Assembly (NCBI RefSeq): GCF_018132105.1
Contig: NZ_JWHL01000004.1
Coordinates: 1-64,000, forward strand
Direction of reading: 5' to 3'
DNA: 64,000 bases
Source: Methanocalculus chunghsingensis
Lineage (GTDB): Archaea > Halobacteriota > Methanomicrobia > Methanomicrobiales > Methanocorpusculaceae
Part shown: piece by piece, positions 35,589-51,061 of the stretch
Layout: every line of letters begins with the position of its first letter
How positions within the stretch are numbered: position 1 is the stretch's first letter
Program-made: the position numbers and the translations under genes
The notes under the pieces: model-generated
Database searches by the model: none
What the model was told of the DNA's origin: nothing
The model's input: the letters and a program-made list of their open reading frames with translations, nothing else

Positions 35589-35812
35589 ATACACCCCGCC
35601 TCCCGGTAATCTCCGGCCATGTTGCAGTAAAGGCCTTTACAAAAGCAGGGTGGAAAGTCCGAAGACAAACTGCGAGCCATATCATTATGAAGAAAGAGGG
35701 GTTTTCAGTATCGCTTTCTGTACCTCTCCATACCGAGGTCAAACGCGGCACTCTCCGTGATCTCATTACCGACTCCGGAATGACTGTTGAGGACTTTATC
35801 AACCGTATCTGA
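35585..35812 (+). CDS. hicA: HicA-family mRNA interferase toxin, apparently non-ATG start
   Basis: The frame reads RLPVISGHVAVKAF, KAGWKVRRQTASHIIM, VPLHTEVKRGTLRDLI and TDSGMTVEDFINRI up to TGA 35812, a complete HicA double-stranded-RNA-binding-like fold with the catalytic His in SHIIM. The only plausible initiator is CTG at 35585, which overlaps the hicB stop as CTGA, mimicking the usual ATGA; no ATG, GTG or TTG lies between the upstream part and the conserved RLPVIS. The length would be 75 residues. The gene is easily missed by gene finders. A rare CTG start or a decayed start codon (inactive toxin) are both possible. Confidence 0.72.
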   Translation: MNTPRLPVISGHVAVKAFTKAGWKVRRQTASHIIMKKEGFSVSLSVPLHTEVKRGTLRDLITDSGMTVEDFINRI

Positions 35813-35981
35813 CCCCCTAACAACACCAGAATCAGCACTATTTCTCCATAATCCTCCACCAGAAACCATATTCAATCACCCCGAAGGCTGGATCCCCGGC
35901 TTCAATCTGGCGACTATTTTTGTTCTCCGCACACACAAGTACCAAAGAATTCTGGACTACCACTCAGGAGATACACACCCA

Positions 35982-36929
35982 ATGCCACGACCAAAACGAA
36001 CACCAGGACAGGCGCACCCGTTTCTCAAATGGGCGGGCGGAAAAACACAGCTTCTGCCCGACCTCATCTCCCGCCTCCCGCCAGGGATTGCCACCGGGGA
36101 GATCACCAGATATGTCGAGCCGTTCATCGGCGGGGGCGCCCTCTTCTTTGCCCTGCACGAGCATCATACCATAGAAGAGTCGTATCTCTCTGACGTCAAC
36201 TGCGAGCTCACCCTCTGCTATTCCGTCATCCAGAAGGATACAGAGGCGCTGATCGAGAGACTGGATCACCTGAAATCGGCGTATTATCAGCGTGACGAGG
36301 AAGAGAGGAAAGCCTTCTATTACGAGATCCGTGACAGCTTCAACAGGCAGCTCTCCGAAATATCGTTTGACGGATACAACCCGGACTGGATCACCCGTGC
36401 GGCATGGATTATCTTCTTAAACCGGACCTGTTTCAACGGACTCTTCCGGGTGAACCGGAGTGGAGGATTCAATGTTCCCTTCGGAAAGTACAAAAATCCT
36501 GATATCCTGAATGCAGAGAACCTGCGCAATGTCGCAAAACTCCTTGCGGAGACGACCATCAGGCAGGGTGACTTCACCGGCTGCCGGGATGTCGTGGATG
36601 AGAAGACATTCGTCTATTTCGATCCCCCCTACCGCCCCCTCAACGAGAAGACTGCCGTCTTCACCTCTTATGCAAAGGACGGGTTTGACGAAGACGACCA
36701 GATCCGGCTCGCCGAATTCTTCCGTGAGCTTGACCGGACGGGAGCAAAAGTCATGCTCTCCAACTCGGATCCCAAAAACACCGATCCCGATGATTGCTTC
36801 TTTGATGATCTCTACTCCGGCTTCACCATCGAACGGGTGCCTGCAACACGGATGATCAATTCAAATGGTGCGGGAAGAGGGGCGATCAACGAGCTGATCA
36901 TCACGAATTACCGGTCATCGGAGAGGTAA
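35982..36929 (+). CDS. dam: Dam-family (D12 class) adenine-N6 DNA methyltransferase
   Basis: A 315-residue alpha-class methyltransferase. Motif X PFLKWAGGKTQLL (about residues 12-24), the SAM motif I EPFIGGGALFF, the asparagine-rich FLNRTCFNGLFRVN target-region segment typical of Dam/DpnII enzymes, and the catalytic DPPYRPL (about residue 212). I set the start at ATG 35982, which has CAGGAG upstream and begins just before the conserved core; a longer frame from 35787 would add 65 poorly conserved residues overlapping hicA. Dam/DpnII enzymes methylate GATC; the same target here is inferred. The nearest candidate effector is the AIPR gene downstream. Confidence 0.88.
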   Translation: MPRPKRTPGQAHPFLKWAGGKTQLLPDLISRLPPGIATGEITRYVEPFIGGGALFFALHEHHTIEESYLSDVNCELTLCYSVIQKDTEALIERLDHLKSAYYQRDEEERKAFYYEIRDSFNRQLSEISFDGYNPDWITRAAWIIFLNRTCFNGLFRVNRSGGFNVPFGKYKNPDILNAENLRNVAKLLAETTIRQGDFTGCRDVVDEKTFVYFDPPYRPLNEKTAVFTSYAKDGFDEDDQIRLAEFFRELDRTGAKVMLSNSDPKNTDPDDCFFDDLYSGFTIERVPATRMINSNGAGRGAINELIITNYRSSER

Positions 36930-37075
36930 GGCATCCCGGAGATCCAAAGCAGACGCTCATGATACGCTCAGGGGCAGCAGGGATACCCGATGAAAAGATG
37001 GATGTTCCGATGGATGTAAAATAAACGGTCTAATAAATAATATATTTTATTTTCAATACTAAAAAATCATTTGGC

Positions 37076-37105
37076 AACTTCAATAAGGTAAAACCTTTTG
37101 AAGTT
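37076..37105 (+). repeat. Imperfect hairpin between dam and the AIPR gene
   Basis: AACTTCAATAAGG, a five-base loop, then CCTTTTGAAGTT: 12 pairs with one bulge. It lies 167 bases after the dam-type gene in a very AT-rich 266-bp gap (36930-37195). It could be a terminator or a control hairpin; no other feature is seen there. Confidence 0.45.
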
Positions 37106-37216
37106 TAAACACCCATGATTCCGAAAGGCCACTAAATGCATCGAATATGGATGTACTTATTTTTTACGAAAAGAACAGGGTATAAGTAACATCCAATGTA
37201 TATCGGAGAGAATAGG

Positions 37217-38884
37217 ATGAATATTAACGCATCAATTATTGATCAGAGGCTTTCTGCAGTTTCTGCATCTATTGCGCAACGAGCACAGGATGAATTATCG
37301 ATCACCGATCCTATTCGATTAAAATCCCTTGCCTTTGTCCACCTCTCTGTACAAACTCTACTTGACATTTCCCCTGATGAGGCATTTGACTGTCTCACTG
37401 AAGGCACACAGGATTTCGGAGTTGATGCCATGCAGATTTCAGAAGAGTTCGATGGGGAATTCGTGGTAACTCTTTTTCAGGGAAAATATAAACAAAAGAA
37501 TCTTGATGGGAACTCAACATTTCCTGAGAGTGGAGTTAGCTCATTGATTCGGGCCATACAGGTTCTCTTCGATCCACAAGCCCAACTTCAGCCAGTTAAT
37601 CCCCGTCTTCTCTCCCGTGTAGAAGAGGTTCGCTCTCTGATTCGTGATGGATATATACCTCAGGTCAGAGCAGTGCTATGCAATAACGGCCTGCACTGGA
37701 ATGAAGCAGCAGACATTCTGATTAAACAGGCAGGTTTTAACAATCAAGTTACATGGGAGTATCTCAACCATGATCGTCTGGTTTCAATTCTTCAATCAAC
37801 AAAACCCATCAATGACACCCTTCATCTCACAGGTTCAGCAATAATCGAGGATTTCAACTTCAGCCGTGTTTTCATTGGGAGAATACATATTAAAGGAATA
37901 TATTCTCTGATGCATAGACATGGAGAACGATTACTCGACAGAAATATCCGCCGTTATCTTGGACTGCAAGGTAACCGGGTAAATGAAGCGATTCGTGACA
38001 CTCTTTTATCTAAGGAAAGTAATAATTTTTATTTCTATAACAATGGTATAACACTCGTTTGTGAGAAGTTTGATTATAACGCTTTACAACGAGGGGATTA
38101 TCAGGTGAATGTTGAAAATCTTCAGATAATCAATGGTGGACAAACCTGTATGACAATATACAAAACACTTAAAGACCATATCTTCGAGCCACCCTCAGAT
38201 GCATATATACTTCTTCGCCTCTACCAGCTTCCTCGTGACAATGATCATCTCATCCGGCAGATAACTTATGCAACAAACAGCCAGAATCCTGTTGACCTCA
38301 AAGATCTCCGGGCAAATGACGATCTCCAGAAACGCCTTGAGGTCGATATCGAACAACTCGGTTATTCATATCGGAGAAAAAGAACCGATTCAACGATTAA
38401 ACCCGTAGATATCACCTCAGGCGTTGCAGCAGAAGCGGTTTTATCGGTCTGGAGGCAGAAGCCACATCAGGCAAAATTCTTCTCCCGAGAACATTTTGGG
38501 AAGCTTTATGATCATATTTTCTCAGAAGATCTGACCGGAGCTCAGGTTATCATTGCAACCCTCATATATCGTATAACTGAGAATCGTCGTAAAAGACCAA
38601 AAGATAATGATCCACCATTTATAAGATACGCATCCTGTTTTCTTGCTATGCAGATGGGACACTACCTTCTTGAGGATATGAAACTGGTACGTGCAGATCT
38701 TGGTCACGTACATCTAAATGAAGCTGAGAAGCTCATCAGGGAAAGAGGAGACTACTATCTTGAACGTGCTATAGTAGCTATTGATTCTGCACTACACAAG
38801 CTGTACGGAACACGGGAGGTTTCACTCCAGCAGTTGGCAGCAACGTTTAGACGTGGAGATTTGATCGAACAGCTTCTGGAGTAG
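37217..38884 (+). CDS. AIPR-family protein (abortive phage infection, putative nuclease)
   Basis: A 555-residue protein of the AIPR family linked to phage defence. The N-terminal part has a nuclease-like pattern GTQDFGVDAMQIS ... VVTLFQGKYK (about residues 61-96), a GxD...QxK arrangement as in PD-(D/E)XK enzymes. The AIPR core is clear in NNFYFYNNGITLVCEKF and VENLQIINGGQTCMTIYKTL, followed by TYATNSQNPVDLKDLRANDD. ATG 37217 has GGAGAG seven bases upstream; ATG 37196 is an alternative, but a TATA box, TATAAGT at 37181, is too near it. Codons are AT-rich compared with the ATPase genes next door. Possible pairing with the dam-type gene is inference. Confidence 0.82.
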   Translation: MNINASIIDQRLSAVSASIAQRAQDELSITDPIRLKSLAFVHLSVQTLLDISPDEAFDCLTEGTQDFGVDAMQISEEFDGEFVVTLFQGKYKQKNLDGNSTFPESGVSSLIRAIQVLFDPQAQLQPVNPRLLSRVEEVRSLIRDGYIPQVRAVLCNNGLHWNEAADILIKQAGFNNQVTWEYLNHDRLVSILQSTKPINDTLHLTGSAIIEDFNFSRVFIGRIHIKGIYSLMHRHGERLLDRNIRRYLGLQGNRVNEAIRDTLLSKESNNFYFYNNGITLVCEKFDYNALQRGDYQVNVENLQIINGGQTCMTIYKTLKDHIFEPPSDAYILLRLYQLPRDNDHLIRQITYATNSQNPVDLKDLRANDDLQKRLEVDIEQLGYSYRRKRTDSTIKPVDITSGVAAEAVLSVWRQKPHQAKFFSREHFGKLYDHIFSEDLTGAQVIIATLIYRITENRRKRPKDNDPPFIRYASCFLAMQMGHYLLEDMKLVRADLGHVHLNEAEKLIRERGDYYLERAIVAIDSALHKLYGTREVSLQQLAATFRRGDLIEQLLE

Positions 38885-38935: not shown

Positions 38936-39046
38936 TCAGATCGCCCCGACAAGCACCAATATCAGCACGATCCCCCCGATCACCACCGTCAGCATCCCGG
39001 CGATCCCAAGTGCCAAAAACAGCAGAGGCAGGTAATCATTCACCAT
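38936..39046 (-). CDS. Small membrane peptide at the end of the ATP synthase operon (AhaG position)
   Basis: A 36-residue frame starting at ATG 39046 inside the last codons of atpD (seven-base overlap). After MVNDYLP it is almost wholly hydrophobic (LLFLALGIAGMLTVVIGG then IVLILVLVGAI), one long or two short membrane spans. Its place matches ahaG, the last gene of the Methanosarcina ahaHIKECFABDG operon, whose product is a small protein of unknown function. The sequence is too short for a homology claim, but the position, overlap and composition support a real gene. It is below normal gene-calling length. Confidence 0.55.
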   Translation of the reverse strand: MVNDYLPLLFLALGIAGMLTVVIGGIVLILVLVGAI

Positions 39047-39687
39047 CGCCGCTCCTCACCCCGTGACTTCGTCCGTTTTCTCCTGAAGAGATCCTCCCGC
39101 TCCTGCTCCTCAAGATAATCGGAGATATAGACAATGATCCCCTTCAGCCGGGGAATCAGGATCGAGTCGAGGGCATTTGTCCGCCTCCGGACTGATGTTA
39201 TCCGTGAGGAGAGGCGGAGGATCGCCCCCTCCACCTCGGAGAGCCGGATTGCCAGAGCCACCGCCTCAAGAGCGAGATCCGAGGCTGCATCGAGGCGTCC
39301 GTTCCCGGCAGCCAGCCCGTACCCCGGCATCTTCCCCGGCCGGAGGGGTTCCGGGATCGCAAATGCAGGGATCCCCACCCCCATGATCCCCTTCCCGGTT
39401 GCCGGAATATCCGGGATCGTCCGTTCGATAGCCGCAGCACTCTCCACCTCCCGCCGGGATCCCGCCATCTCAGCCTCCATGAGGGCAGGATAGGCGGCGG
39501 CAAACGCCTCTTCCATTCTTCGTCGCATCTCATCCCGCCGCTTTGTCAGGGAGAAGAACTCCATCACCATCGCATCAAGCTTCTCCCGGAGCAGTTCATG
39601 CCCCTTCTCGGCGGTCACAAGCCTGCGACGGACCTTCTGCAACTCGATGCGTGTCGGTCTCAGCCCCGGCGGGAGGCGCCTGCTCAC
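39040..39687 (-). CDS. atpD: A-type ATP synthase subunit D
   Basis: Central rotor stalk subunit, 215 residues. It is mainly two long helices with [25 protein letters not shown] near the N-terminus and [39 protein letters not shown] near the C-terminus, both family landmarks. It overlaps atpB (ATGA) upstream and the small membrane peptide downstream. The order H-I-K-E-C-F-A-B-D on this strand is that of methanogen ATP synthase operons. Confidence 0.93.
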
Positions 39688-41072
39688 CCGATCTCACCCC
39701 GGTAATACTCCCTGATGAAGGCGGGGTTGATCCGTTTCAGCTCGTCTTGTGGGAAGATGGAGAGGAGATCCCATGCCCGATCAAGGGTCTCGCCTATCGA
39801 GCGGCCTTCATCCCTCTTCTGCCCGACAAACTCCTCTTCAAACCGTTCAAGGAAGGTGAGGTACAGCCGGTCGGTATCGGTCAGCCCTTCATCGCCGATG
39901 ACCGCAACAAGCCCGGCAAGCCGTCGTCCACGGGCGTATGCCGCATAGAGCTGGCTTGAGACATCCGCATGGTCGGCCCGTGTCCTCTCCTTCCCGATCC
40001 CCCCCTGCATCAGCCGTGATAAACAGGGGAGAACATCGATCGGAGGGTAGATCCCTTTCCGGTGGAGTTCGCGGGAGAGGACGATCTGGCCTTCGGTGAT
40101 ATACCCGGTCAGGTCGGGGACAGGGTGGGTGATATCGTCATCAGGCATCGAGAGGATCGGCAGCTGGGTGATCGATCCGGCCCGGCCTTTGACCCTCCCG
40201 GCACGTTCATACAGGGAGGCGAGATCGGTGTACATATAGCCCGGATACCCCCGGCGGGCCGGGATCTCCTCACGGGCGGCCGAAACCTCCCTGAGTGCCT
40301 CGCAGTATGCCGTGATATCCTGCATCACCACAAGGACATGCATCCCGCAGTCAAACGCGAGATACTCGGCTGCGGTCAGGGCGAGGCGGGGAGTGACGAT
40401 CCGCTCGATGGCAGGATCATCGGCACGGTTTAAGAAGAGGACGGCGTGTGCCCGTGCCCCGGTCTCGGAGAACTCACGGATAAAGAACCGGGCTTCCTCA
40501 TGCGTGATCCCCATCGCCGCAAAGACGACGGCAAACGACTCCTCCGTTCCACGGACCCGTGCCTGCCGGGTGATCTGGGCGGCGAGCTGGCTGTGGGGGA
40601 GACCGGAGCCTGAGAAGACCGGGAGTTTCTGTCCCCGGACGAGGGTGTTCATCCCGTCGATGGCCGATATCCCGGTCTCGATGAAATCCTCCGGGAACTC
40701 ACGCCTCGTCGGATTGATCGCATACCCTGAGATCTCCATCTCCTTCTCAGGCACAACGCGGCCCCCCCCGTCGATAGGCTCGGCCGATCCCGAGAAGATC
40801 CTGCCGAGCATCTCTTTTGCAACCGGCATCATCAGTGGCTTTCCGGTGAACCGAACCGCCGATACATCACAGTCGAGATCCCGGGTTCCGCCAAAGACCA
40901 TCACGATCGCCATCCCCATCCGGGACTCGAGGACCTGGCCAAGCCGCATGGTGCCATCCGGCAGGAGGACGTGGACGACCTCGTTATATCCGGCATCATC
41001 GATCCCGGAGACGGCGAGGATCGGGCCGGCCACCCGGACGACGGACCGGAACTCACGGAGCGGTTGTGTCAT
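39684..41072 (-). CDS. atpB: A-type ATP synthase subunit B
   Basis: Non-catalytic nucleotide-binding subunit of the A1 head, 462 residues. In place of the Walker A loop it has [15 protein letters not shown] (about residues 153-167), the non-catalytic form typical of archaeal B subunits. [37 protein letters not shown] and [22 protein letters not shown] are conserved. It overlaps atpA and atpD by four bases each. Confidence 0.96.
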
Positions 41073-42826
41073 CGTCTGCCTCCTTTGAATGCATCATCAA
41101 TCTCATGCAGCACCGTCTCATACTGCTCTGCAAAGTCATCATGCGGCATCGGTCCCATCCGGGCAAGCCTGCCGGCAACCGGGAGCCCTGCCGCCTCTTC
41201 TGCCGTCATCCCTTCTTCAACCGCATCTCTTCCATGAAGCAGGTACCGGTGAATCAGCCGCATCATCCGGTACTGCTTCTCCGGTGGGCAGAAAGTATCG
41301 ACCTCATCAAATGCGGACTGGATGAGGAATGACTCACGCAGGATGGTGGCGACATGGAGCGTAAACTTGTCCTGTTCCGGGAGGAGATCGGGCCCGACGA
41401 GCTGGACGATCTCTTCAAGCTCGCTCTCCTTCTGGAGGAGCCTGAGGAGATCGCCCCGCATTCTGCCCCAGTCCGTTCCGCCATGCTTCTCCCACCAGGG
41501 CTCAGCCAGATCGGCGTAGAGCGAGTACGAGAGGAGCCAGTTCACTGCCGGGAAATGTCGCTGATGGGCGAGATCGGCATCCAGTGCCCAGAAGACCCTG
41601 ACGATCCGGAGCGTATTCTGGGTCACCGGTTCTGAGAAGTCGCCCCCCGGAGGTGATACCGCACCGATGACAGAGACCGATCCCTCCTCCCCGGATAATG
41701 CCGTCACCCGCCCGGCACGCTCATAAAAGTCGGCAAGCCGTGATCCGAGGTACGCAGGATACCCATGCTCTCCGGGCATCTCCTCAAGCCGGCCGGAGAT
41801 CTCCCGCATCGCCTCGGCCCACCTGGAAGTTGAATCTGCCATCAGTGCAACGGAGTACCCCATATCCCGGTAATACTCCGCGATGGTGATCCCGGTATAG
41901 ACCGATGCCTCACGTGCGGCGACCGGCATGTTCGATGTATTCCCGATAAGAACCGTCCGTTTCATCAGTGGCTCCTTCGTCTTTGGATCGATGAGGGCAG
42001 GGAACTGCCTGAGGACATCGGCCATCTCGTTTCCACGCTCTCCGCATCCGACATAGACGATGATATCCGCATCCGACCATTTGGCGAGCTGATGCTGGAC
42101 AACGGTCTTCCCGGCACCAAAGGGGCCCGGTACCGCCGCCGTCCCCCCCTGGACCATCGGGAAGAAGGAGTCGATCACCCGCTGGCCGGTGATGAGGGGC
42201 CGGACCGGAGGGAGCTTCTCCCGAATCGGGCGGGGCACCCGGACCGGCCAGCGCTGGAGCATCGTGATCTCATGCTCGTTGCCATCTCTGTCAGCCAGCC
42301 AGAGGATTTGGTCGAGAACCGTGTACTCCCCCTCTCCGGCAACCTTCGTCACCTTCCCGGAGAGATGGGGTGGGAGGAGGATCGAATGGATGATCTGGTT
42401 CGTCTCCGGCACCGTCCCGATGACGGCTCCCCCCTTCAGCTCATCCCCTTCGGTGACATCCGGCGTGAACCTGTATCTCCTCTCCCTCGGCAATGCCGGG
42501 CTGCTCACCCCCCTGATGATGAAGTCGCCGGAGATGGATCCAAGCTCAGTGAGCGGCCTCTGGATACCATCATAGATCATCCCGAGGAGACCGGGGCCGA
42601 GCTCGACCGAGAGGGACATCCCGGTGCGTTGCACCGGCTCGCCGGGGGTGATCCCGCCCGTATCCTCGTAGACCTGAACGGTTGCCAGATCTTCTTCAAG
42701 CCCGATGATCTCGCCGATCAGCTCGTCATCTCCAACATAGACGACCTCGTACATCTGTGCTCCACGCATCCGGTCTGCCTCGACGACTGGACCGGTGATC
42801 CGGATTATCCTGCCTTTATCACTCAA
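41069..42826 (-). CDS. atpA: A-type ATP synthase catalytic subunit A
   Basis: Catalytic subunit of the A1 head, 585 residues. The Walker A motif is [14 protein letters not shown] (about residues 231-244), with the P-loop Ala at the fifth place where GPFGSGKT is common in archaeal A subunits. The bulge or non-homologous region lies before it, and [58 protein letters not shown] and [18 protein letters not shown] follow. No intein is present. Six bases separate it from atpF. Confidence 0.97.
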
Positions 42827-42832
42827 CGCATA

Positions 42833-43150
42833 TCACCCTGGCATCCCTTTCCCTGCTACACGCCGTATCGCGGCGGTCACTGCATCTTCTCCCCCGAAAG
42901 GGCCTCCCGGCCCCGGTATCGCGATGACGGCCGGATAGACCGCATCTGATCGCCCGTGATCGCTCAGGAGCGGGAGGATCTCCTCCTGGTACCGGTCGAG
43001 GATCAGGATGATCCCGATGGTATTATCCCCCAGTGCCTCCCGAAGGGCCTCTTCTGCCTCATCTCCGTCCTCGCACCTGATGACATCCTCAATTCCGGCA
43101 AGCCTGCAGAGGAGGGTCGTCGCCCGATCCCCGATTGCGATGATCCTCAT
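42833..43150 (-). CDS. atpF: A-type ATP synthase subunit F
   Basis: Small regulatory/central stalk subunit, 105 residues. It begins MRIIAIGDRATTLLCRLAGI, the Rossmann-like fold start of F subunits, with TIGIILILDRYQEEI in the middle. It overlaps atpC by four bases and is followed by atpA. Confidence 0.9.
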   Translation of the reverse strand: MRIIAIGDRATTLLCRLAGIEDVIRCEDGDEAEEALREALGDNTIGIILILDRYQEEILPLLSDHGRSDAVYPAVIAIPGPGGPFGGEDAVTAAIRRVAGKGMPG

Positions 43151-44343
43151 GGAACCCCCCCTTCAGTCACCATCATGGCGGCTCCTCTCTCCTCGCCAAT
43201 CCCGAGAATCAGTCTCCCTGCGGCTGCCCTGAGGTTTAGGATCTCCATCTCAAGGGCCAGAAGGTACCGGATGATCGGCCCGCTTCCGAGATGGTACTGG
43301 CTGCTGTTCATCCTGCCGACATCCAGGAGGCAGCGGTTCAGGGCGATCTCGATCTCCCCGCTGTTCCTCACCCCTTTCTCCAGACGTGGTTCGAGATACC
43401 GGCCGTACATCGTATCCCTGAGGGCGGCAGTCATCTCGATGAGATCTGCTGTTCGTGCAAGCTCCTTCTGGAGATCGATGGTGATCTCAAAGCCACCCTG
43501 CGGGATGAGGAAGGGGATGAGATCGTTCCCATCGATTCCGGCAATCTTTCCACGGGCGAGGATTCGGAGATTTTCGCAGTCGATCATCCGGCCAGCCATC
43601 ATCACCGCGGGTTCGTACTGGGAGTCCTCAATCCCCCGGGCAGTCATCATCAGGCTCTGGTACGCACCGGCGATCAGTGCCGCTTCGAAGGCTGCAAAAC
43701 CGACCGGCTCACCGATCCTCATCCATTGCTCCCGGATACCGGGGGTGATCGCTGATCGTTCAAGCCTCTGGACCGCCTCTTCGATTGTATCCGAATGTGC
43801 TGCCTTCCTGATCGCCGTCTCACTCAGCCCTCCGACCGGGACTGCCCGTTTATTAATAAGATCCCGGGGGAGATTGCCTGCGATCCCCCGGAGAATGGCC
43901 GCAACCTCACGGGTGGCAAAGATCTGGGTATACGCGGTGATGAGGGGCCGTATCGCATCGGGAACGCTCCCGGCGAGGTCTGTAAGCAACCTGTAATGAT
44001 GGGATCGGATCAGGTGTTCGCAGTCGTCGGCAGAGATCCCCTCCCTGTATCCGACATGGTGGCCGATACGTTCCGCACGTTCAAAGAGGTCGAGGAGGTC
44101 GGCTGATGCAGTGATCGACTCCACCCCTTCCCTGGTGATGAGGGGATTGCCGATTGCCCGGACACGTGCCGCCGGATAGGCGAAGGATGCGATACTGAGG
44201 ATTATCCGGAACCATCCGGCAGAGATCGCGATAAATATGGCGACCATGAAGGCAATGGCGAGGCCGAGGGCGACGATCCCGGCTCCTTCGACGGTGAGGA
44301 GTTCCGAGAAGATGATCTCAATATCCAGTATCTCCACCACCAT
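43147..44343 (-). CDS. atpC: A-type ATP synthase subunit C
   Basis: Subunit that joins the central stalk to the proteolipid ring (homologue of V-ATPase d), 398 residues. Family segments: YPAARVRAIGNPLITREGVESI, DLAGSVPDAIRPLITAYTQIFATREVAAILRG, and the end LRAAAGRLILGIGEERGAAMM. Residues about 18-44 form a hydrophobic segment (GAGIVALGLAIAFMVAIFIAISAGWF) that is longer than expected for a peripheral subunit and may be a membrane anchor. A later start would remove it, but no good ribosome-binding site points to one. It overlaps atpE by 26 bases. Confidence 0.88.
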   Translation of the reverse strand: MVVEILDIEIIFSELLTVEGAGIVALGLAIAFMVAIFIAISAGWFRIILSIASFAYPAARVRAIGNPLITREGVESITASADLLDLFERAERIGHHVGYREGISADDCEHLIRSHHYRLLTDLAGSVPDAIRPLITAYTQIFATREVAAILRGIAGNLPRDLINKRAVPVGGLSETAIRKAAHSDTIEEAVQRLERSAITPGIREQWMRIGEPVGFAAFEAALIAGAYQSLMMTARGIEDSQYEPAVMMAGRMIDCENLRILARGKIAGIDGNDLIPFLIPQGGFEITIDLQKELARTADLIEMTAALRDTMYGRYLEPRLEKGVRNSGEIEIALNRCLLDVGRMNSSQYHLGSGPIIRYLLALEMEILNLRAAAGRLILGIGEERGAAMMVTEGGVP

Positions 44344-44929
44344 ACAGGACGCCCGATACCGTCTGGGTCAGCTTGTTTCGCATATTGAGCAGCCGGGTTG
44401 GGAACGTCTGGTCACACCGGATGGCTCCATCCCTCGCAAGCAGGATCACCCCCCCGATCCGTATCATCGGATCATGCCCTGAAAGGGGAGTGACCGTCAC
44501 ATTGCTGATCCCCTCTGCCGCCTCCTCGGCTGCTTCCCTGTCTTCTGCACGGCAGAGGATGGTAAGCGCCCCGTCACTGATCATCTCCCTTCCTTCAAGG
44601 ATGAGGTGGCGGAGGATCCCGGGATAGGCGGAGGAGGATACTATCTCTGACAGCTCCTCTTCGGCGATGGAGAAGACCTCCTCGATGCCATCCCACCGTG
44701 CCTTCCGTTCTGCTGCCATCGCCTCAAACTCGGCCTGGAGGAGGATGGCACGCCGCATCGCCTCGATCTCCCTCTCCGTCTCACGCCGGATCTGCTCAGC
44801 CTTCTGGTCGGCCCTGAGGCGGCCCTTCTCCCTGATGCCTGCCGATTCCTCTTCTGCTTTTTTTCGGAGCCGGGCGATCTCCTCATCCCTCTCCTCTTCG
44901 ATCAGCCGGATAATCACCTCCCTGCTCAT
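44318..44929 (-). CDS. atpE: A-type ATP synthase subunit E
   Basis: Peripheral stalk subunit, 203 residues. The N-terminal half is a charged coiled coil (IRLIEEERDEEIARLRKKAEEESAGIREKGR to about residue 90), and the C-terminal half is the globular domain with LRHLILEGREMI and MIRIGGVILLARDGAIRCDQTFPTRL. It should pair with subunit H. It starts one base after the atpK stop and runs 26 bases into atpC. Confidence 0.92.
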   Translation of the reverse strand: MSREVIIRLIEEERDEEIARLRKKAEEESAGIREKGRLRADQKAEQIRRETEREIEAMRRAILLQAEFEAMAAERKARWDGIEEVFSIAEEELSEIVSSSAYPGILRHLILEGREMISDGALTILCRAEDREAAEEAAEGISNVTVTPLSGHDPMIRIGGVILLARDGAIRCDQTFPTRLLNMRNKLTQTVSGVLYGGGDTGY

Positions 44930-46384
44930 CTAGAGTCCTCCGAAGAGCCCGATACCAAACATGATCAGGATCGCAATCAGGAGGCCGAAGATGGCAAACG
45001 TCTCTGCCATCACCGCAAAGACGAGGCTCTGGCCCATCGCTTCAGGGCGGCGGGCAACCGCACCGATCCCGGCCGCCGCCGTCATCCCCTGTCCGATGGC
45101 AGAGAGCCCGGCAAGCCCGACGGCAAAGCCTGATCCGATGCAGGCAAGCCCTGCCGCTGCGGTTGCGGTGACATCGCGGGTGATGATCCCGGTGAATGCC
45201 ATGATCAGAATGGCGACGAGGAGTCCGTATATCGCCTGTGTCTCCGGCACCACCGTGAAGACAAGACCTTTTCCAAACATATCCTCTCGCTCGGAGGTCG
45301 TTGCAATCCCTGCCGATGCCGCTATCCCCTGGCCGATGGCGGATATCGCAGCGAACCCGACGGCGATACCGCAGGCGATGGATGCAAATCCGGCGGCGAG
45401 GGTGGCGGTGACATCCCGGGTGATCATCCCGGTAAATGCCATGATCAGAATTGCAACAAGGAGCCCGTATATCGCCTGCGTCTCCGGGATGACCGAGAAG
45501 ACGAGGGACCGGCCAAACGACTCCTGCTTCTCGGCGGTCGCCGCTGCCCCGGCAGCAGCTGCAATCCCCTGGCCGATTGCGGAGAGTCCGGCAAGCCCGA
45601 CGGCAAATCCGCATCCGAGCGCTGCGATGCCTATTGCAGGCTCTGTAATGGGATCACCGGCGATCATCCCGGTAAATGCCATGATGAGAATGGCGACAAG
45701 GAGCCCGTATATCGCCTGCGTCTCCGGGATGACCGAGAAGACGAGGGATCTGCCAAACGCACCCTCATGCTCTGCAGAGGAGGAAGAGCCTGCGGCCGCC
45801 GCGATCCCCTGACCGATGGCAGACAATCCTGCGATACCGACGGCAAGACCACAACCGATGGCGGCAAACCCGGTCGCCGTCGTGGCGACCTCGTCGCCGG
45901 AGAGGAGGCCGGTAAATGCCATGATGAGAATCGCAACAAGAAGTCCGTATATCGCCTGGGTCTCCGGAATGACCGAGAAGACAAGGGACCGACCCATCGA
46001 CCCCTCGCGTTCGGCTGCTGTTGCAATCCCGGCGGATGCTGCGATCCCCTGTCCGATGGCAGAGAGTCCTGCGACACCGACCGCCAGACCGGCACCGAGT
46101 GCCGCAAGCCCCATCGGGACCGAGACGGTGGTGTCACCGCCGCCTATCACCCCGGTTGCGAGGAGGATGAGGACGGCGATGAGGAGGCCGTACATCCCCT
46201 GTGTCTGGGGTACTGCCTGGAAGACGAGTGCCTGGCCGAACTTCTCCGGCTTTATGGCGATGACCCCTGCCCCGGTCGCTCCGGCAATACCAACGCCGAT
46301 GCCGGAGCCGATGGCGGAGAGGCCGACGGCAAGTCCGGCCCCGATGACGGCGAGGATGAAGCCGGCTGTTATCTCAGGTATCAT
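44930..46384 (-). CDS. atpK: A-type ATP synthase proteolipid (subunit K/c) with six hairpins
   Basis: Rotor ring subunit, 484 residues, made of six two-helix hairpins of about 80 residues each (12 membrane helices) instead of the usual one or two. Hairpins 2-5 carry LSAIGQG (or ISAIGQG) in helix 1 and PETQAIYGLL in helix 2, so the Gln and the ion-binding Glu are present. Hairpin 6 has AETFAIFGLL with the Glu kept. Hairpin 1 has AIGSG and PQTQGMYGLL: both the Gln and the Glu are lost. The product therefore has five ion-binding carboxylates per six hairpins. Methanocaldococcus (three hairpins) and Methanopyrus (thirteen) are known multi-hairpin cases. Gln plus Glu-Thr suggests Na+ binding, by inference. 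It overlaps atpI by four bases. Confidence 0.95.
   Translation of the reverse strand: MIPEITAGFILAVIGAGLAVGLSAIGSGIGVGIAGATGAGVIAIKPEKFGQALVFQAVPQTQGMYGLLIAVLILLATGVIGGGDTTVSVPMGLAALGAGLAVGVAGLSAIGQGIAASAGIATAAEREGSMGRSLVFSVIPETQAIYGLLVAILIMAFTGLLSGDEVATTATGFAAIGCGLAVGIAGLSAIGQGIAAAAGSSSSAEHEGAFGRSLVFSVIPETQAIYGLLVAILIMAFTGMIAGDPITEPAIGIAALGCGFAVGLAGLSAIGQGIAAAAGAAATAEKQESFGRSLVFSVIPETQAIYGLLVAILIMAFTGMITRDVTATLAAGFASIACGIAVGFAAISAIGQGIAASAGIATTSEREDMFGKGLVFTVVPETQAIYGLLVAILIMAFTGIITRDVTATAAAGLACIGSGFAVGLAGLSAIGQGMTAAAGIGAVARRPEAMGQSLVFAVMAETFAIFGLLIAILIMFGIGLFGGL
44940..46380 (-). repeat. Six direct 240-bp repeats encoding the AtpK hairpins
   Basis: Units recur at exactly 240-bp spacing; for example, the segment TCTCCGGGATGACCGAGAAG occurs at 45481 and 45721, with near copies at 45241, 45961 and (diverged) 46201. 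Copies 2-5 are most alike at DNA level; the first and last hairpins are most diverged. This is a recent intragenic expansion. Confidence 0.85.
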
Positions 46385-48369
46385 TGGTCATCCTCCATGA
46401 GGCGGGTCGTCGTCCGTGAGGATGCAAACGGGAGAAAGACCCGTCCTCCACCGGCATAGAACGTCCCGAAGAACTCGACATACTGAAGACGAAGTGCATG
46501 GATAAAACCTCCGAGTGCCTGCAGCACAAGATTTGCCGCATGGCCTGCAATGGCAAAGAGTACAGCGACGATGACGAGGACCGGGTGGAGCGACCCGATC
46601 ATCTCAGCAAGAATATTGATCGTCATCGCTATCCCGGCGGTGGCAAGTGCCAGTGCCAGAATTCTCGTATAACTGAGCCAGTCACCGAGGAACCCGGTGA
46701 TACTGAAGAACCCGAGCGGCCCCTCGACAAGGAAGATCAGCGCAGCCGCAACAGCCGCTCCAAACCCGGCGGCGAGGATGACCGGCTGGGAGATCTCTGC
46801 CCATCCGAAGAAGGCAAAGAGGAGGATGGCTGCACAGGGCTGCAGGAGGAACCAGACACCTTCGGATCTGAGCATCTCCACCGGCTTTCCCTCACTGAGG
46901 TGGCGGTATGATGCGATGGCAAGGCCGATATTCAGATGGATGATCCCAAAGATGAGGGCTCCCGTCAGGAGGATGAGGGGGTCCATCAGGGGATCGATGA
47001 CGGCAAAGGGAACGGAAGCCCCGAAGAACCGGGGGAGGAGATCCCCGAAGAATCCCCCCTGGAGGATGCCGAAGAGAGTACCGGAGATTCCGCAGGCGAC
47101 GAGAACGATGGCGAGATCCCGTGTTGATCCCGGTGCACTCGCCGGGCCTGCAAGGAGAGCTGCTGCAATGATCGCAAGGAGAAGGCCGTACCCCGCATCC
47201 CCGAGCATCACCCCGAAGGTGATGATCAGAACAGGGGCGATGAAGATGGTCGGGTCGATCTCGCGATATTTCGGCCGGGCAAAGGTTGTGGTGAGGAAGG
47301 CGAAGGGTGCGAGCCACCAGGGGTGTTCATACGAGACCGGAACCTCGGCATCCCCATCCTCCCCCGGAACCGACCGGTAGATGAGGGTTCCCCCGGCATG
47401 ATCGTCCCCGATCCTTTTGAGATGCGGGATATCCCGCTTCCGAATCCAGCCTGTATAGAGCCGGAGATCCCGTGTCGATCCCGCAAGTGCGGCTGCATCG
47501 ATCCGCTCCCTGGCAAGGGCAAGATCCTCGGCGACAGCCGCGATATCGCGGAGATGATCTCCGGTGATCTGGTGGAGCCTCTCTTCGATTGCACCACTCT
47601 CCTCATGCAGATCTCTTCTGGCCGAGGTGATATCGGCAAGGGCATCCTCGACCCTCCCTTCCTCTCTGACGAAGGTGAAGTCAGCGAAGGCACGTGAGCG
47701 GAGGAGATCATCGACCGCCTCTGCCGAGCGGTTATGGACGGCAATGGTCACCACCATCCCCTCCTCCCTGCACCTGCAGACAGAGCTGACGACTGCATCG
47801 GTGATCCCCTCTTCTTCAAAGAGTGCATCGAGATCCTCGCACTCATCCGTTGGGATGAGCCCTGCCCTGAGGGTGATGAAACGGTGGTTTGAACGGGGAG
47901 GAAGTCTCTCGCTTAAGCATCCAAAGAGGGTGAGCTGCTCCTCTTCCTCATTAAGACGTATCAGATGTTCATCGATAGCAGATCGGCGGGTTCTCAGGTC
48001 GAGAATTTCGCCGATCATCTCCTCATGAATCCCTGCGGCATGAAGGATCTCTTCCGGGCTCCGCCTCGGGACAACGACAGGTTCAGGCCTGATCGGGAGG
48101 AGGAACCCGGCGATCCTTCCACGCTCTCCCTGCATCTGGCTGATGAGGATCTCCACCGCCCGTTCGGCCCGTGACTGGACCGCCGCAATCTCCTGCCTGA
48201 TGGCATCACGCCGGACCGGGGTGATGAGCGGCTTGAGATGGTCGTCGCCGGTGATCGGGGTCAGCTCAACGATCCCTGCTTCATGGACGGCATGAAGAAA
48301 GGATCCCGCGTACCGGCGATGGATACCGATCGTGATCCGATGCATCTCAGCCGGAAAGAACATCCTCAT
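46381..48369 (-). CDS. atpI: A-type ATP synthase subunit I (a subunit, stator)
   Basis: Membrane stator that forms the ion half-channels, 662 residues. The N-terminal half (to about 330) is the cytoplasmic arm with alpha-helical hairpins. The C-terminal half has about eight membrane segments, starting VLIITFGVMLGDAGYGLLLAIIAAALL, with GFLGDWLSYTRILALALATAGIAMTIN carrying the essential Arg (SYTRILAL). The end LVLQALGGFIHALRLQYVEFFGTFYAGGGRVFLPF is a family landmark. It overlaps atpH by 23 bases and atpK by four. Confidence 0.95.
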   Translation of the reverse strand: MRMFFPAEMHRITIGIHRRYAGSFLHAVHEAGIVELTPITGDDHLKPLITPVRRDAIRQEIAAVQSRAERAVEILISQMQGERGRIAGFLLPIRPEPVVVPRRSPEEILHAAGIHEEMIGEILDLRTRRSAIDEHLIRLNEEEEQLTLFGCLSERLPPRSNHRFITLRAGLIPTDECEDLDALFEEEGITDAVVSSVCRCREEGMVVTIAVHNRSAEAVDDLLRSRAFADFTFVREEGRVEDALADITSARRDLHEESGAIEERLHQITGDHLRDIAAVAEDLALARERIDAAALAGSTRDLRLYTGWIRKRDIPHLKRIGDDHAGGTLIYRSVPGEDGDAEVPVSYEHPWWLAPFAFLTTTFARPKYREIDPTIFIAPVLIITFGVMLGDAGYGLLLAIIAAALLAGPASAPGSTRDLAIVLVACGISGTLFGILQGGFFGDLLPRFFGASVPFAVIDPLMDPLILLTGALIFGIIHLNIGLAIASYRHLSEGKPVEMLRSEGVWFLLQPCAAILLFAFFGWAEISQPVILAAGFGAAVAAALIFLVEGPLGFFSITGFLGDWLSYTRILALALATAGIAMTINILAEMIGSLHPVLVIVAVLFAIAGHAANLVLQALGGFIHALRLQYVEFFGTFYAGGGRVFLPFASSRTTTRLMEDDQ

Positions 48370-48679
48370 CTCCCGTGACTGCCCTGATGATCACCCTCAC
48401 CCCGTCTCTCTTCTTCGATGAGGCGAGTGCATGCAGACGTTTCACTGCCTCCTCCGCATCCAAAGCCATCATCTCTGCGATAGTCTCTGCATCCTTTCGT
48501 GCCCGGCTGATCTCCTCGTCTGCCGCTCTCCGGGCCTTCACCTCCTCTTCCCTGATATACTCTGCCGCTTTCTTCTGTTCTGCATCGATGGCTGATGCCG
48601 CCTCTGCCTTCGCAGCCTCAATCTGCGAGACGGCCTCCTCTTCGACCTTCAGGACGGCCTCGATATCATGAACAGGCAT
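48347..48679 (-). CDS. atpH: A-type ATP synthase subunit H
   Basis: Peripheral stalk subunit, 110 residues, almost all charged coiled coil (LKVEEEAVSQIEAAKAEAASAIDAEQKKAAEYI and onward), pairing with subunit E. It is the first gene of the operon; a TATA-like element shared with the divergent chorismate mutase gene lies about 25 bases upstream. Confidence 0.85.
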   Translation of the reverse strand: MPVHDIEAVLKVEEEAVSQIEAAKAEAASAIDAEQKKAAEYIREEEVKARRAADEEISRARKDAETIAEMMALDAEEAVKRLHALASSKKRDGVRVIIRAVTGDEDVLSG

Positions 48680-49149: not shown

Positions 49150-50088
49150 GTGATGAAGAACAGGCGTCTTATCGATTATAATCCTGTGGATGCTATATCC
49201 GGCTACTCAATAATGAGGGGACCAACATCTGAAGGTGGTATCAGAGTCACTGATTACAACACAGAAGTACCATTGGTCTCTCAGATTATGCAGGGCGACT
49301 CTTTCAAGGTACTAAAGACTATTTCAGACAATACATTTCGGACCTGTATCACAAGCCCTCCATACTGGGGGCTTCGCGACTATGACATCTCCGGTCAGAT
49401 AGGAGCCGAGGATAATCTGGATGACTATATTGACAACCTTGTCTCCATTTTTCGAGAAGTTCGACGAACACTAACCCCTGATGGTACGTTATGGCTGAAT
49501 ATTGGAGATAGTTACACGAGTGGTAACCGGAGGACGAGAGATCCGGATAAGAAGAATATGGCCAGAGGGATGAGCTATCGCCCTCCGACCCCCGAGGGCC
49601 TCAAGCCGAAGGATCTGATTGGTCTTCCATGGAGACTTGCCTTTGCCCTCCAGGCTGATGGTTGGTATCTGCGATCAGATATCATCTGGCATAAGCCAAA
49701 CTGCCAACCAGAATCTGTTAAGGATCGTCCTACGCGGTGTCATGAATATCTCTTTTTATTTGCGAAGAATGAGAAATATTACTTCAATTCAGAGGAGATA
49801 CGGGAACCTGCAACATCACGGAAAGGCTGGCGTAACCGACGCTCAATCTGGTCTATAAACACTGAGCCAAATCAATATGATCACTTTGCAATGTTCCCCG
49901 AATCTCTTATTGAACCCTGTCTTCTCGCAAGTACCCTCGAATGTGACAAGGTTCTTGATCCATTCTTCGGATCAGGAACAGTGGGCGTGGTTGCTCTGAA
50001 ACTGCACCGCCGGTTCTGTGGCATTGAACTCAATCCAAAATATCTGGATATCTCGTATAAGCGGATCAGTGAGTTGGTTAGATCATGA
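49150..50088 (+). CDS. Type II DNA methyltransferase, probably N4-cytosine, beta class
   Basis: A 312-residue methyltransferase. The catalytic motif IV TSPPYWGLRDYD (about residues 69-80) comes before the SAM motif I LDPFFGSGTVGVVAL (about 275-289): the beta-class order, and TSPPYWGLRDY is the usual N4-cytosine form. The middle target-recognition region includes LKPKDLIGLPWRLAFALQADGWYLRSDIIWHKPN. GTG 49150 or ATG 49153 starts are both possible; GGAG stands a few bases upstream. The restriction endonuclease gene follows. Base composition is AT-richer than the ATPase genes. Confidence 0.88.
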   Translation: MMKNRRLIDYNPVDAISGYSIMRGPTSEGGIRVTDYNTEVPLVSQIMQGDSFKVLKTISDNTFRTCITSPPYWGLRDYDISGQIGAEDNLDDYIDNLVSIFREVRRTLTPDGTLWLNIGDSYTSGNRRTRDPDKKNMARGMSYRPPTPEGLKPKDLIGLPWRLAFALQADGWYLRSDIIWHKPNCQPESVKDRPTRCHEYLFLFAKNEKYYFNSEEIREPATSRKGWRNRRSIWSINTEPNQYDHFAMFPESLIEPCLLASTLECDKVLDPFFGSGTVGVVALKLHRRFCGIELNPKYLDISYKRISELVRS

Positions 50089-50107
50089 GCAAAACAGTGT
50101 ACCCTGT

Positions 50108-51061
50108 ATGCCTGCATTGCAGATTGAGTTCTCGCACAGGTTATCAGAGCTCCGCTCATTATATCTTCATCAGTCACTAGCCAGGGCCCTCAGGGATGTG
50201 AGTATTCATGACCTTGATGCCGAACTTGAGGAGTACGTCGGCGAAACATATCTGAAACATCTGGCTGTTATCGGTCTTCGTGGTGAAACAATATTCCCCG
50301 TTCCTATCCTCCTCCGGGCTGATCCAGGCCTCCTTGGATATTATCGATTGCTGTATGGATTCTCACAGAAGGAGATATATACAAAGGGGCCTTTTGGAAA
50401 ATTCAAAACTCTGGAAGAGAAACGTATCATTCCACCTCGACTTGAATCAGAGATTGAACCGTTTTGCCAGAGTCTGATCGAGACTGCCAAGTCGATGGTG
50501 ACTGGGATTGAGGATCTTTCATTAAATCTTATTCATGATCTTCAGTTACTCACCCTGGGTCCACAACTTCGTGGAGGGAGAAATAATACAGTTGGTCAAT
50601 CAGCCGCCGCAGAGGTCTTTGATCTCATGCATCAGATTGTCAGATCCTATGTCCGGATGATCGATCAGACGAAGCGGGTTATCACAATAGAGAACGATTC
50701 CGGCCGTATACTGAGAATTGAGTTCTTCGCCGATCCTGATATTCAGATAATTGAAGAAGCCCGCTCCGGCCCTCTTCCTCGCGTTTCGATTGAGATCAAG
50801 GGTGGCGGAGACGGATCAAACATCCACAACCGCCTTGGCGAAGCAGAGAAGAGCCATCGGAATGCAAAGGCAAAGGGGTTCTCTCATTTCTGGACAATGA
50901 TACGGGTTGCTATGGACTATACTATCGCAGAACAAGAATCTCCAACCACAACCCATTTTTTTAACATTAATGCCATTCAGGATGTGACATCGGATGAATA
51001 TCACATCTTCAGGGATATGCTATGCTCAATTCTCGGCATCCGTCTGCCACAAGAAGGGTAA
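50108..51061 (+). CDS. Type II restriction endonuclease (XcyI/XamI-like)
   Basis: A 317-residue nuclease partner of the methyltransferase. A PD-(D/E)XK-type active site is suggested by FADPDIQIIEEA followed by VSIEIKGGGDGSNIHNRLGEAEKSH (about residues 233-265), the ExK with the GGxDxSNIHNRxGEAEKSH extension found in XcyI/XmaI-type and related enzymes. I chose ATG 50108 (MPALQIEFSHRL), 20 bases after the methyltransferase stop; a frame from 50018 would overlap that gene by 71 bases with an unlikely N-terminus. If XcyI-like, the target would be CCCGGG, but CCCGGG sites are present in the window and the specificity is unproven. Confidence 0.75.
   Translation: MPALQIEFSHRLSELRSLYLHQSLARALRDVSIHDLDAELEEYVGETYLKHLAVIGLRGETIFPVPILLRADPGLLGYYRLLYGFSQKEIYTKGPFGKFKTLEEKRIIPPRLESEIEPFCQSLIETAKSMVTGIEDLSLNLIHDLQLLTLGPQLRGGRNNTVGQSAAAEVFDLMHQIVRSYVRMIDQTKRVITIENDSGRILRIEFFADPDIQIIEEARSGPLPRVSIEIKGGGDGSNIHNRLGEAEKSHRNAKAKGFSHFWTMIRVAMDYTIAEQESPTTTHFFNINAIQDVTSDEYHIFRDMLCSILGIRLPQEG

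What the first reader, a model, noticed from the sequence alone, without database searches (positions are those of the whole stretch)
44930..46384. ATP synthase proteolipid with six fused hairpins, the first lacking the ion site
Direct reading shows six 80-residue units, each a helix pair. Units 2-5 hold GQG in helix 1 and PETQ in helix 2, and unit 6 keeps the Glu. Unit 1 has AIGSG and PQTQ, losing both ligands. A protein of this kind would give five carboxylates per 12 helices, so the ion-to-ATP ratio of the motor would differ from single-hairpin rings. Triple-hairpin K subunits in Methanocaldococcus also lack the carboxylate in one hairpin, by established knowledge; a six-fold case is rarely discussed. 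The exact 240-bp DNA period shows recent expansion.
Basis: partly seen in the sequence, partly recalled or inferred. Interest (0 to 1): 0.62.

Follow-up and report, generated by a model that had tools for sequence, protein, structure and literature searches.

The report
Six-hairpin sodium rotor subunit, five sites
A methane-making archaeon carries, as one of three ATP-making motors, one whose rotor protein is six rotor units fused end to end, with five predicted sodium sites between neighbouring units and a dead seam where one protein meets the next; related archaea use the same design with two, three or four units.

Summary
Window 44930-46384 (-) encodes a 484-residue subunit K of six c-type hairpins inside a complete A-type ATP synthase operon (H-I-K-E-C-F-A-B-D). 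It is not an assembly effect and not a recent expansion: 34 distinct six-hairpin orthologues, several from one-contig genomes, occur across Methanomicrobiales, and middle hairpins mostly match the same position in other genera better than their neighbours in the chain. The ligand reading needs correction. The Na+ site of this class lies between hairpins: Gln and Glu come from one; Thr, Gln and Tyr from the hairpin before. Hairpin 1 lost only the Gln/Glu half (V31, Q60) but keeps T61/Q62/Y65. Hairpin 6 keeps Q432/E461 but lost the Gln/Tyr half (F463, F466). So there are five complete sites, all inside the chain; only the chain-chain seam is dead, on both faces. The same arrangement (first cap, complete hairpins, last cap; n hairpins, n-1 sites) holds in all 74 capped proteins scored, with n = 2, 3, 4 or 6, and in two-hairpin Enterococcus hirae NtpK. 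It is a new variant of a known kind. Ring size, and hence ions per ATP, was not measurable here.

The parts
44930..46384 (-). subunit K, 484 aa, six fused c-type hairpins, five complete Na+-type sites
   Evidence: ORF; 6 x PF00137; 34 distinct six-hairpin proteins with the same ligand pattern; AF2 pLDDT 87.6
46154..46366 (-). hairpin 1, first cap (residues 7-77): V31 and Q60 replace the site Gln and Glu; T61, Q62, Y65 kept and predicted to serve E141
   Evidence: residues invariant in 18 aligned orthologues
45911..46120 (-). hairpin 2, complete (residues 89-158): Q112, E141; T142, Q143, Y146
45671..45880 (-). hairpin 3, complete (169-238): Q192, E221; T222, Q223, Y226
45431..45640 (-). hairpin 4, complete (249-318): Q272, E301; T302, Q303, Y306
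45191..45400 (-). hairpin 5, complete (329-398): Q352, E381; T382, Q383, Y386
44954..45160 (-). hairpin 6, last cap (409-477): Q432, E461 kept; F463 and F466 replace the site Gln and Tyr
48347..48679 (-). subunit H of the same operon
   Evidence: ORF; same place in orthologous operons; no Pfam match
46381..48369 (-). subunit I (stator), keeps the SYTR and LRLQ arginines
   Evidence: PF01496
44318..44929 (-). subunit E
   Evidence: PF01991
43147..44343 (-). subunit C with an N-terminal transmembrane segment (residues 22-45, about 44209-44280)
   Evidence: PF01992; hydropathy survey
42833..43150 (-). subunit F
   Evidence: ORF, homologues in the same place
41069..42826 (-). subunit A (catalytic)
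   Evidence: PF00006, PF16886, PF22919, PF02874
39684..41072 (-). subunit B
   Evidence: ORF, homologues in the same place
39040..39687 (-). subunit D
   Evidence: ORF, homologues in the same place

Best explanation
It is the rotor subunit K of a predicted Na+-coupled A1AO ATP synthase, one of three A-type enzymes of the cell. Each chain folds as an arc of six hairpins, and two or more chains close the ring. Ions sit between neighbouring hairpins: hairpin i gives a backbone carbonyl, Thr, Gln and Tyr; hairpin i+1 gives Gln and Glu. Each chain so holds five sites. The seam between chains holds none, because hairpin 1 lacks the Gln/Glu half and hairpin 6 lacks the Gln/Tyr half. At each seam the rotor passes two hairpins between carboxylates instead of one, so steps are uneven and the ring carries 5/6 as many ions per turn as it has hairpins. 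Lineages have changed the number of complete hairpins between two fixed caps (2, 3, 4 or 6 hairpins in all). Shown by computation: sequence, counts, ligand pattern, conservation, operon, spread. Inferred from the E. hirae and Ilyobacter structures: site geometry and Na+ as the ion. Not shown: ring size, ions per ATP, direction of work.
For: Ligand pattern VQTQY-(QETQY)x4-QETFF in all 34 distinct six-hairpin proteins; the same grammar in all 3 four-hairpin, 9 three-hairpin and 28 capped two-hairpin proteins, with no half-dead seam. Site geometry: Glu+Gln of one hairpin, Ser/Thr hydroxyl and backbone carbonyl of the neighbour; in E. hirae Glu139/Gln110 with Leu61/Thr64/Gln65 (PMC2359735). Best sequence and fold match in the PDB is E. 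hirae NtpK 2bl2 (E 1.5e-20; TM-score 0.87 by target length, rmsd 1.7). All ligand columns invariant in an 18-sequence alignment whose members are 66-91% identical to the window. Each cap has a single origin in a tree of 102 hairpins (SH-aLRT 98 and 99). Complete operon with stator arginines kept.
Against: No structure, mass or ion assay exists for this ring. Geometry is carried over from E. hirae. A ring could in principle mix in single-hairpin K from the other two operons. Na+ versus H+ cannot be settled by ligands alone.
Confidence: 0.82

Rival explanations
1. Hairpin 1 is a decayed, functionless unit; the dead hairpin is neutral degeneration of one copy after duplication.
For: Hairpin 1 lacks Gln and Glu.
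Against: Its Thr, Gln and Tyr, and the V31/Q60 replacements, are invariant across 18 orthologues; 74 capped proteins of 2-6 hairpins share the arrangement, with small letter variants only in four two-hairpin proteins; the loss in hairpin 6 is complementary.
Confidence: 0.05
2. Recent tandem expansion or assembly artefact: the true hairpin number is variable or wrong.
For: Regular 240-bp spacing; TRF finds the array; some MAG contigs break inside the repeat (L050, L052, L053, L054).
Against: Six hairpins in one-contig genomes G001, G009, G031, G037, G079 and in Methanocalculus taiwanensis; among pairs 75-100% alike the best-matching middle hairpin is the one at the same position in 886 of 964 cases (chance 25%); DNA identity between middle hairpins is 69-74%.
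Confidence: 0.03
3. The enzyme is chiefly an ATP-driven Na+ pump, not a synthase, working beside the two single-hairpin A-type enzymes of the cell.
For: It is an accessory operon, with relatives in 58 of 232 genomes of the order, beside single-hairpin K operons; E. hirae NtpK, the nearest solved relative, belongs to an ATP-driven pump (established knowledge).
Against: E. hirae carries one carboxylate per two hairpins; here five per six, close to the density of synthases. No expression data.
Confidence: 0.3
4. The K product is processed to single hairpins, so fusion has no mechanical meaning.
For: None found.
Against: Processed hairpins would lose the fixed order that makes the caps complementary; the caps sit only at the ends in every protein.
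Confidence: 0.03

Closest known systems
Enterococcus hirae NtpK (V-type Na+-ATPase, PDB 2bl2), two hairpins, one site
   Same: First hairpin gives Thr/Gln/Tyr, second gives Gln/Glu; same dead seam; best sequence and fold match
   Different: No complete hairpins between the caps; one site per two hairpins instead of five per six
Methanocaldococcus jannaschii triple-hairpin K
   Same: Fused hairpins in a methanogen A-type enzyme (PMC2359735)
   Different: Three hairpins; its sequence was not fetched here, so the cap pattern was not tested in it
Methanopyrus kandleri K, 13 hairpins
   Same: Long fused K chain in a methanogen
   Different: Every hairpin complete (PMC2359735), no caps, deduced to form the ring alone
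Methanobacteriales two-hairpin K
   Same: Same Na+ motif QETQY, fused hairpins
   Different: Both hairpins complete in 30 of 30 distinct sequences, seam live
Methanospirillum hungatei JF1, three Aha clusters
   Same: Three A-type operons in one Methanomicrobiales genome (PMC4704411)

Membership tests
ATP synthase subunit c/K (Pfam ATP-synt_C) | PF00137 domain over cut-off | tested here: met
   six stretches, 304 bits in all, cut-off 24
A-type (archaeal) ATP synthase | operon H-I-K-E-C-F-A-B-D with catalytic A subunit | tested here: met
E. hirae NtpK-type (capped) rotor subunit | first hairpin with Thr/Gln/Tyr but no Glu; last hairpin with Gln/Glu but without the second Gln and the Tyr | tested here: met
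E. hirae NtpK-type (capped) rotor subunit | exactly two hairpins, one site | tested here: not met
   six hairpins, five sites
Methanopyrus-type K (all hairpins complete, monomeric ring) | complete ligand set in every hairpin | tested here: not met
   hairpins 1 and 6 incomplete
Na+-type rotor site | Glu, Gln, Thr, second Gln and Tyr present at each site | tested here: met
   five of five internal sites
Na+-type rotor site | Na+-dependent activity | not testable with these tools
   needs purified enzyme
Ring stoichiometry | number of chains per ring | not testable with these tools
   needs cryo-EM or native mass spectrometry

The most novel reading that the evidence does not exclude
A modular gearbox: two fixed caps bracket a variable number of complete hairpins, and lineages change the ion-per-ATP ratio and the step pattern by adding or removing middle hairpins (2, 3, 4, 6). 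With two chains the ring would have 12 hairpins and 10 sites (3.3 ions per ATP), with three chains 18 and 15 (5.0), always with unequal steps at the seams.
Probability: 0.4. Interest if true: 0.75.

Novelty: new variant of a known kind. Interest (0 to 1): 0.6.

Why it matters
The number of ion sites in the rotor sets how many ions an ATP costs. Here evolution has changed hairpins and sites separately, by a simple rule that can be read from sequence, in organisms living near the energy limit. The series 2-3-4-6 with homologous caps gives natural test cases for how ring size, site number and the seam between chains affect the motor. The missing carboxylate at each seam also tests how much rotor asymmetry the stator tolerates.

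Tried and rejected
Core hairpins as simple crossover chimaeras of the two caps: by eye the part after the motif resembles the last cap except at Gln and Tyr, so complete hairpins as the older state looks likelier; not settled. Independent origin of six hairpins in two lineages: core hairpins of family f6 form one group (SH-aLRT 93), but a tree with all second hairpins held together is not rejected (AU p 0.47; the tests for other positions did not finish), and all six-hairpin operons as one clade is not rejected on subunit A (AU p 0.115). 'Only divisors of 12 occur' (2, 3, 4, 6; no five-hairpin seen) is noted as a pattern, not a result. A sample of 150 genomes of the phylum of Methanosphaera gave no complete K longer than two hairpins among the matches listed. 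Literature: no paper found in the open library describes a six-hairpin K; subscription reviews could not be read.

Full report
What is there. The minus-strand ORF 44930-46384 encodes 484 residues with six ATP-synt_C domains. It lies in a complete A-type operon on the minus strand: H 48347-48679, I 46381-48369, K, E 44318-44929, C 43147-44343, F 42833-43150, A 41069-42826, B 39684-41072, D 39040-39687. The closest named relatives are Methanocalculus (91% to M. taiwanensis), so the window is from a Methanocalculus-like methanogen. Its genome holds two further A-type operons, both with ordinary single-hairpin K; M. taiwanensis likewise has two single-hairpin K genes besides the six-hairpin one.

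Is the count real. Six hairpins occur in 34 distinct proteins from many genera of the order, including genomes in one contig (G001, G009, G031, G037, G079). A match at E <= 1e-20, that is a multi-hairpin relative, is found in 58 of 232 genomes of the order, 39 of 135 good ones. In pairs of six-hairpin proteins 75-100% alike, the best match of a middle hairpin is the one at the same position in 886 of 964 cases; at 60-75% likeness only in 39%. In the window, hairpins 2-5 are 69-74% identical in DNA; against two genomes of other families (G003, G037) the same middle position is 78-88% identical in protein, other middle positions 60-82%. The array is therefore old. The 240-bp regularity most likely reflects a length constraint.

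The sites. In solved rings the Na+ lies between two hairpins: Glu and Gln of one, Ser/Thr hydroxyl and a backbone carbonyl of the next; in E. hirae NtpK these are Glu139 and Gln110 with Leu61, Thr64 and Gln65 (PMC2359735). Read this way, hairpin 1 (V31, Q60; T61, Q62, Y65) has lost one half-site and kept the other. Hairpin 6 (Q432, E461; F463, F466) is its mirror image. Hairpins 2-5 are complete. That gives five full sites between hairpins 1|2, 2|3, 3|4, 4|5 and 5|6, and a seam 6|1 that is dead on both faces. All these residues are invariant in 18 aligned orthologues.

The rule. I scored every multi-hairpin K obtained. Capped proteins: 34 with six hairpins, 3 with four, 9 with three, 28 with two. 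All have n-1 internal sites and a seam dead on both faces. Uncapped: 30 two-hairpin proteins of Methanobacteriota, both hairpins complete. (The only other multi-hairpin entries are the frame-broken M. cariaci copy and the odd L238 protein, below; one protein, L247, could not be scored.) No complete protein had a half-dead seam, and no five-hairpin protein was seen. Four hairpins occur in a one-contig genome (L146) and in two others, so they are not collapse artefacts. In a tree of 102 hairpins, all first caps form one group (98) and all last caps another (99), so among these sequences caps arose once and only the middle varies. On a subunit A tree, hairpin number changes at least five times among the multi-hairpin operons and their single-hairpin kin. 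In one family three-hairpin operons sit inside a group of six-hairpin ones, and their middle hairpin groups with hairpin 2 of the six-hairpin proteins (97), which fits loss of three hairpins. Whether six was reached once or twice is not resolved.

How it likely works. Chains close a ring on which the stator subunit I, with both arginines present, passes ions one by one. Between carboxylates the ring turns one hairpin inside a chain and two at each seam. Ions per turn are five per chain. With two chains this is 10 per 3 ATP, with three chains 15 per 3 ATP. Ring size is unknown. The complete ligand set predicts Na+, the ion that the methanogen methyltransferase Mtr pumps (established knowledge). 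The two single-hairpin K of the same genome lack the second Gln and the Tyr and carry Met or Glu at the Gln position, so they differ in ion site.

A linked feature. Subunit C of the window operon starts with a transmembrane segment (residues 22-45). The same was seen in the six-, four- and three-hairpin operons read, in Methanobacteriota, Nanohalarchaeota and in two groups with complete single hairpins (L086, L152); a few could not be judged by the script. It is missing from the operons with ordinary single-hairpin K, from deltaproteobacterial two-hairpin ones and from L150. Since C caps the ring on its axis in known enzymes, this helix may sit in the rotor lumen. That is inference.

Known or new. 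Fused K chains of two, three and 13 hairpins are known, and the sharing of ligands between the two E. hirae hairpins was noted in PMC2359735. Three A-type operons in one Methanomicrobiales genome are known from M. hungatei (PMC4704411). I found no description of the six-hairpin form or of the cap rule in the open library; subscription reviews on archaeal rotors could not be read, so priority is unsure.

Noticed in passing
L249:7666-8649 (genome G240, contig C1, 81.7-82.6 kb): In the only A-type operon found there, two K genes in a row: a three-hairpin protein without a carboxylate in any hairpin (PQTQ three times, no site Gln) and a single complete hairpin (GQG/PETQ). It suggests a mixed ring with few live sites. 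Class of three genomes; size suggests Methanonatronarchaeia (inference). No second example found.
   Followed up: partly
window 43147-44343 and C subunits of related operons: N-terminal transmembrane helix on subunit C goes with Na+-motif K and is absent from ordinary single-hairpin K operons.
   Followed up: partly
L252:7104-10721 (G374 C18) and L251:4568-8186 (G235 C3): I-K-C clusters with two-hairpin capped K and no E, F, A, B or D genes in the stretch read: perhaps a spare membrane sector. G374 has a fuller operon elsewhere.
   Followed up: no
L047 / L025 (Methanogenium cariaci JCM 10550): Most genes of the whole six-hairpin operon are broken by frameshifts; either decay or a low-quality draft.
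   Followed up: no
L003 / L089:9939-10229: One single-hairpin K of the window's genome has Glu in place of the site Gln (GVAEMG), a two-carboxylate type; the other (L002) has Met there.
   Followed up: no
window 35787-38884 and 49150-51061: The operon is flanked by a Dam-like DNA methylase and a possible AIPR-type protein on one side and another DNA methyltransferase on the other (names by eye).
   Followed up: no
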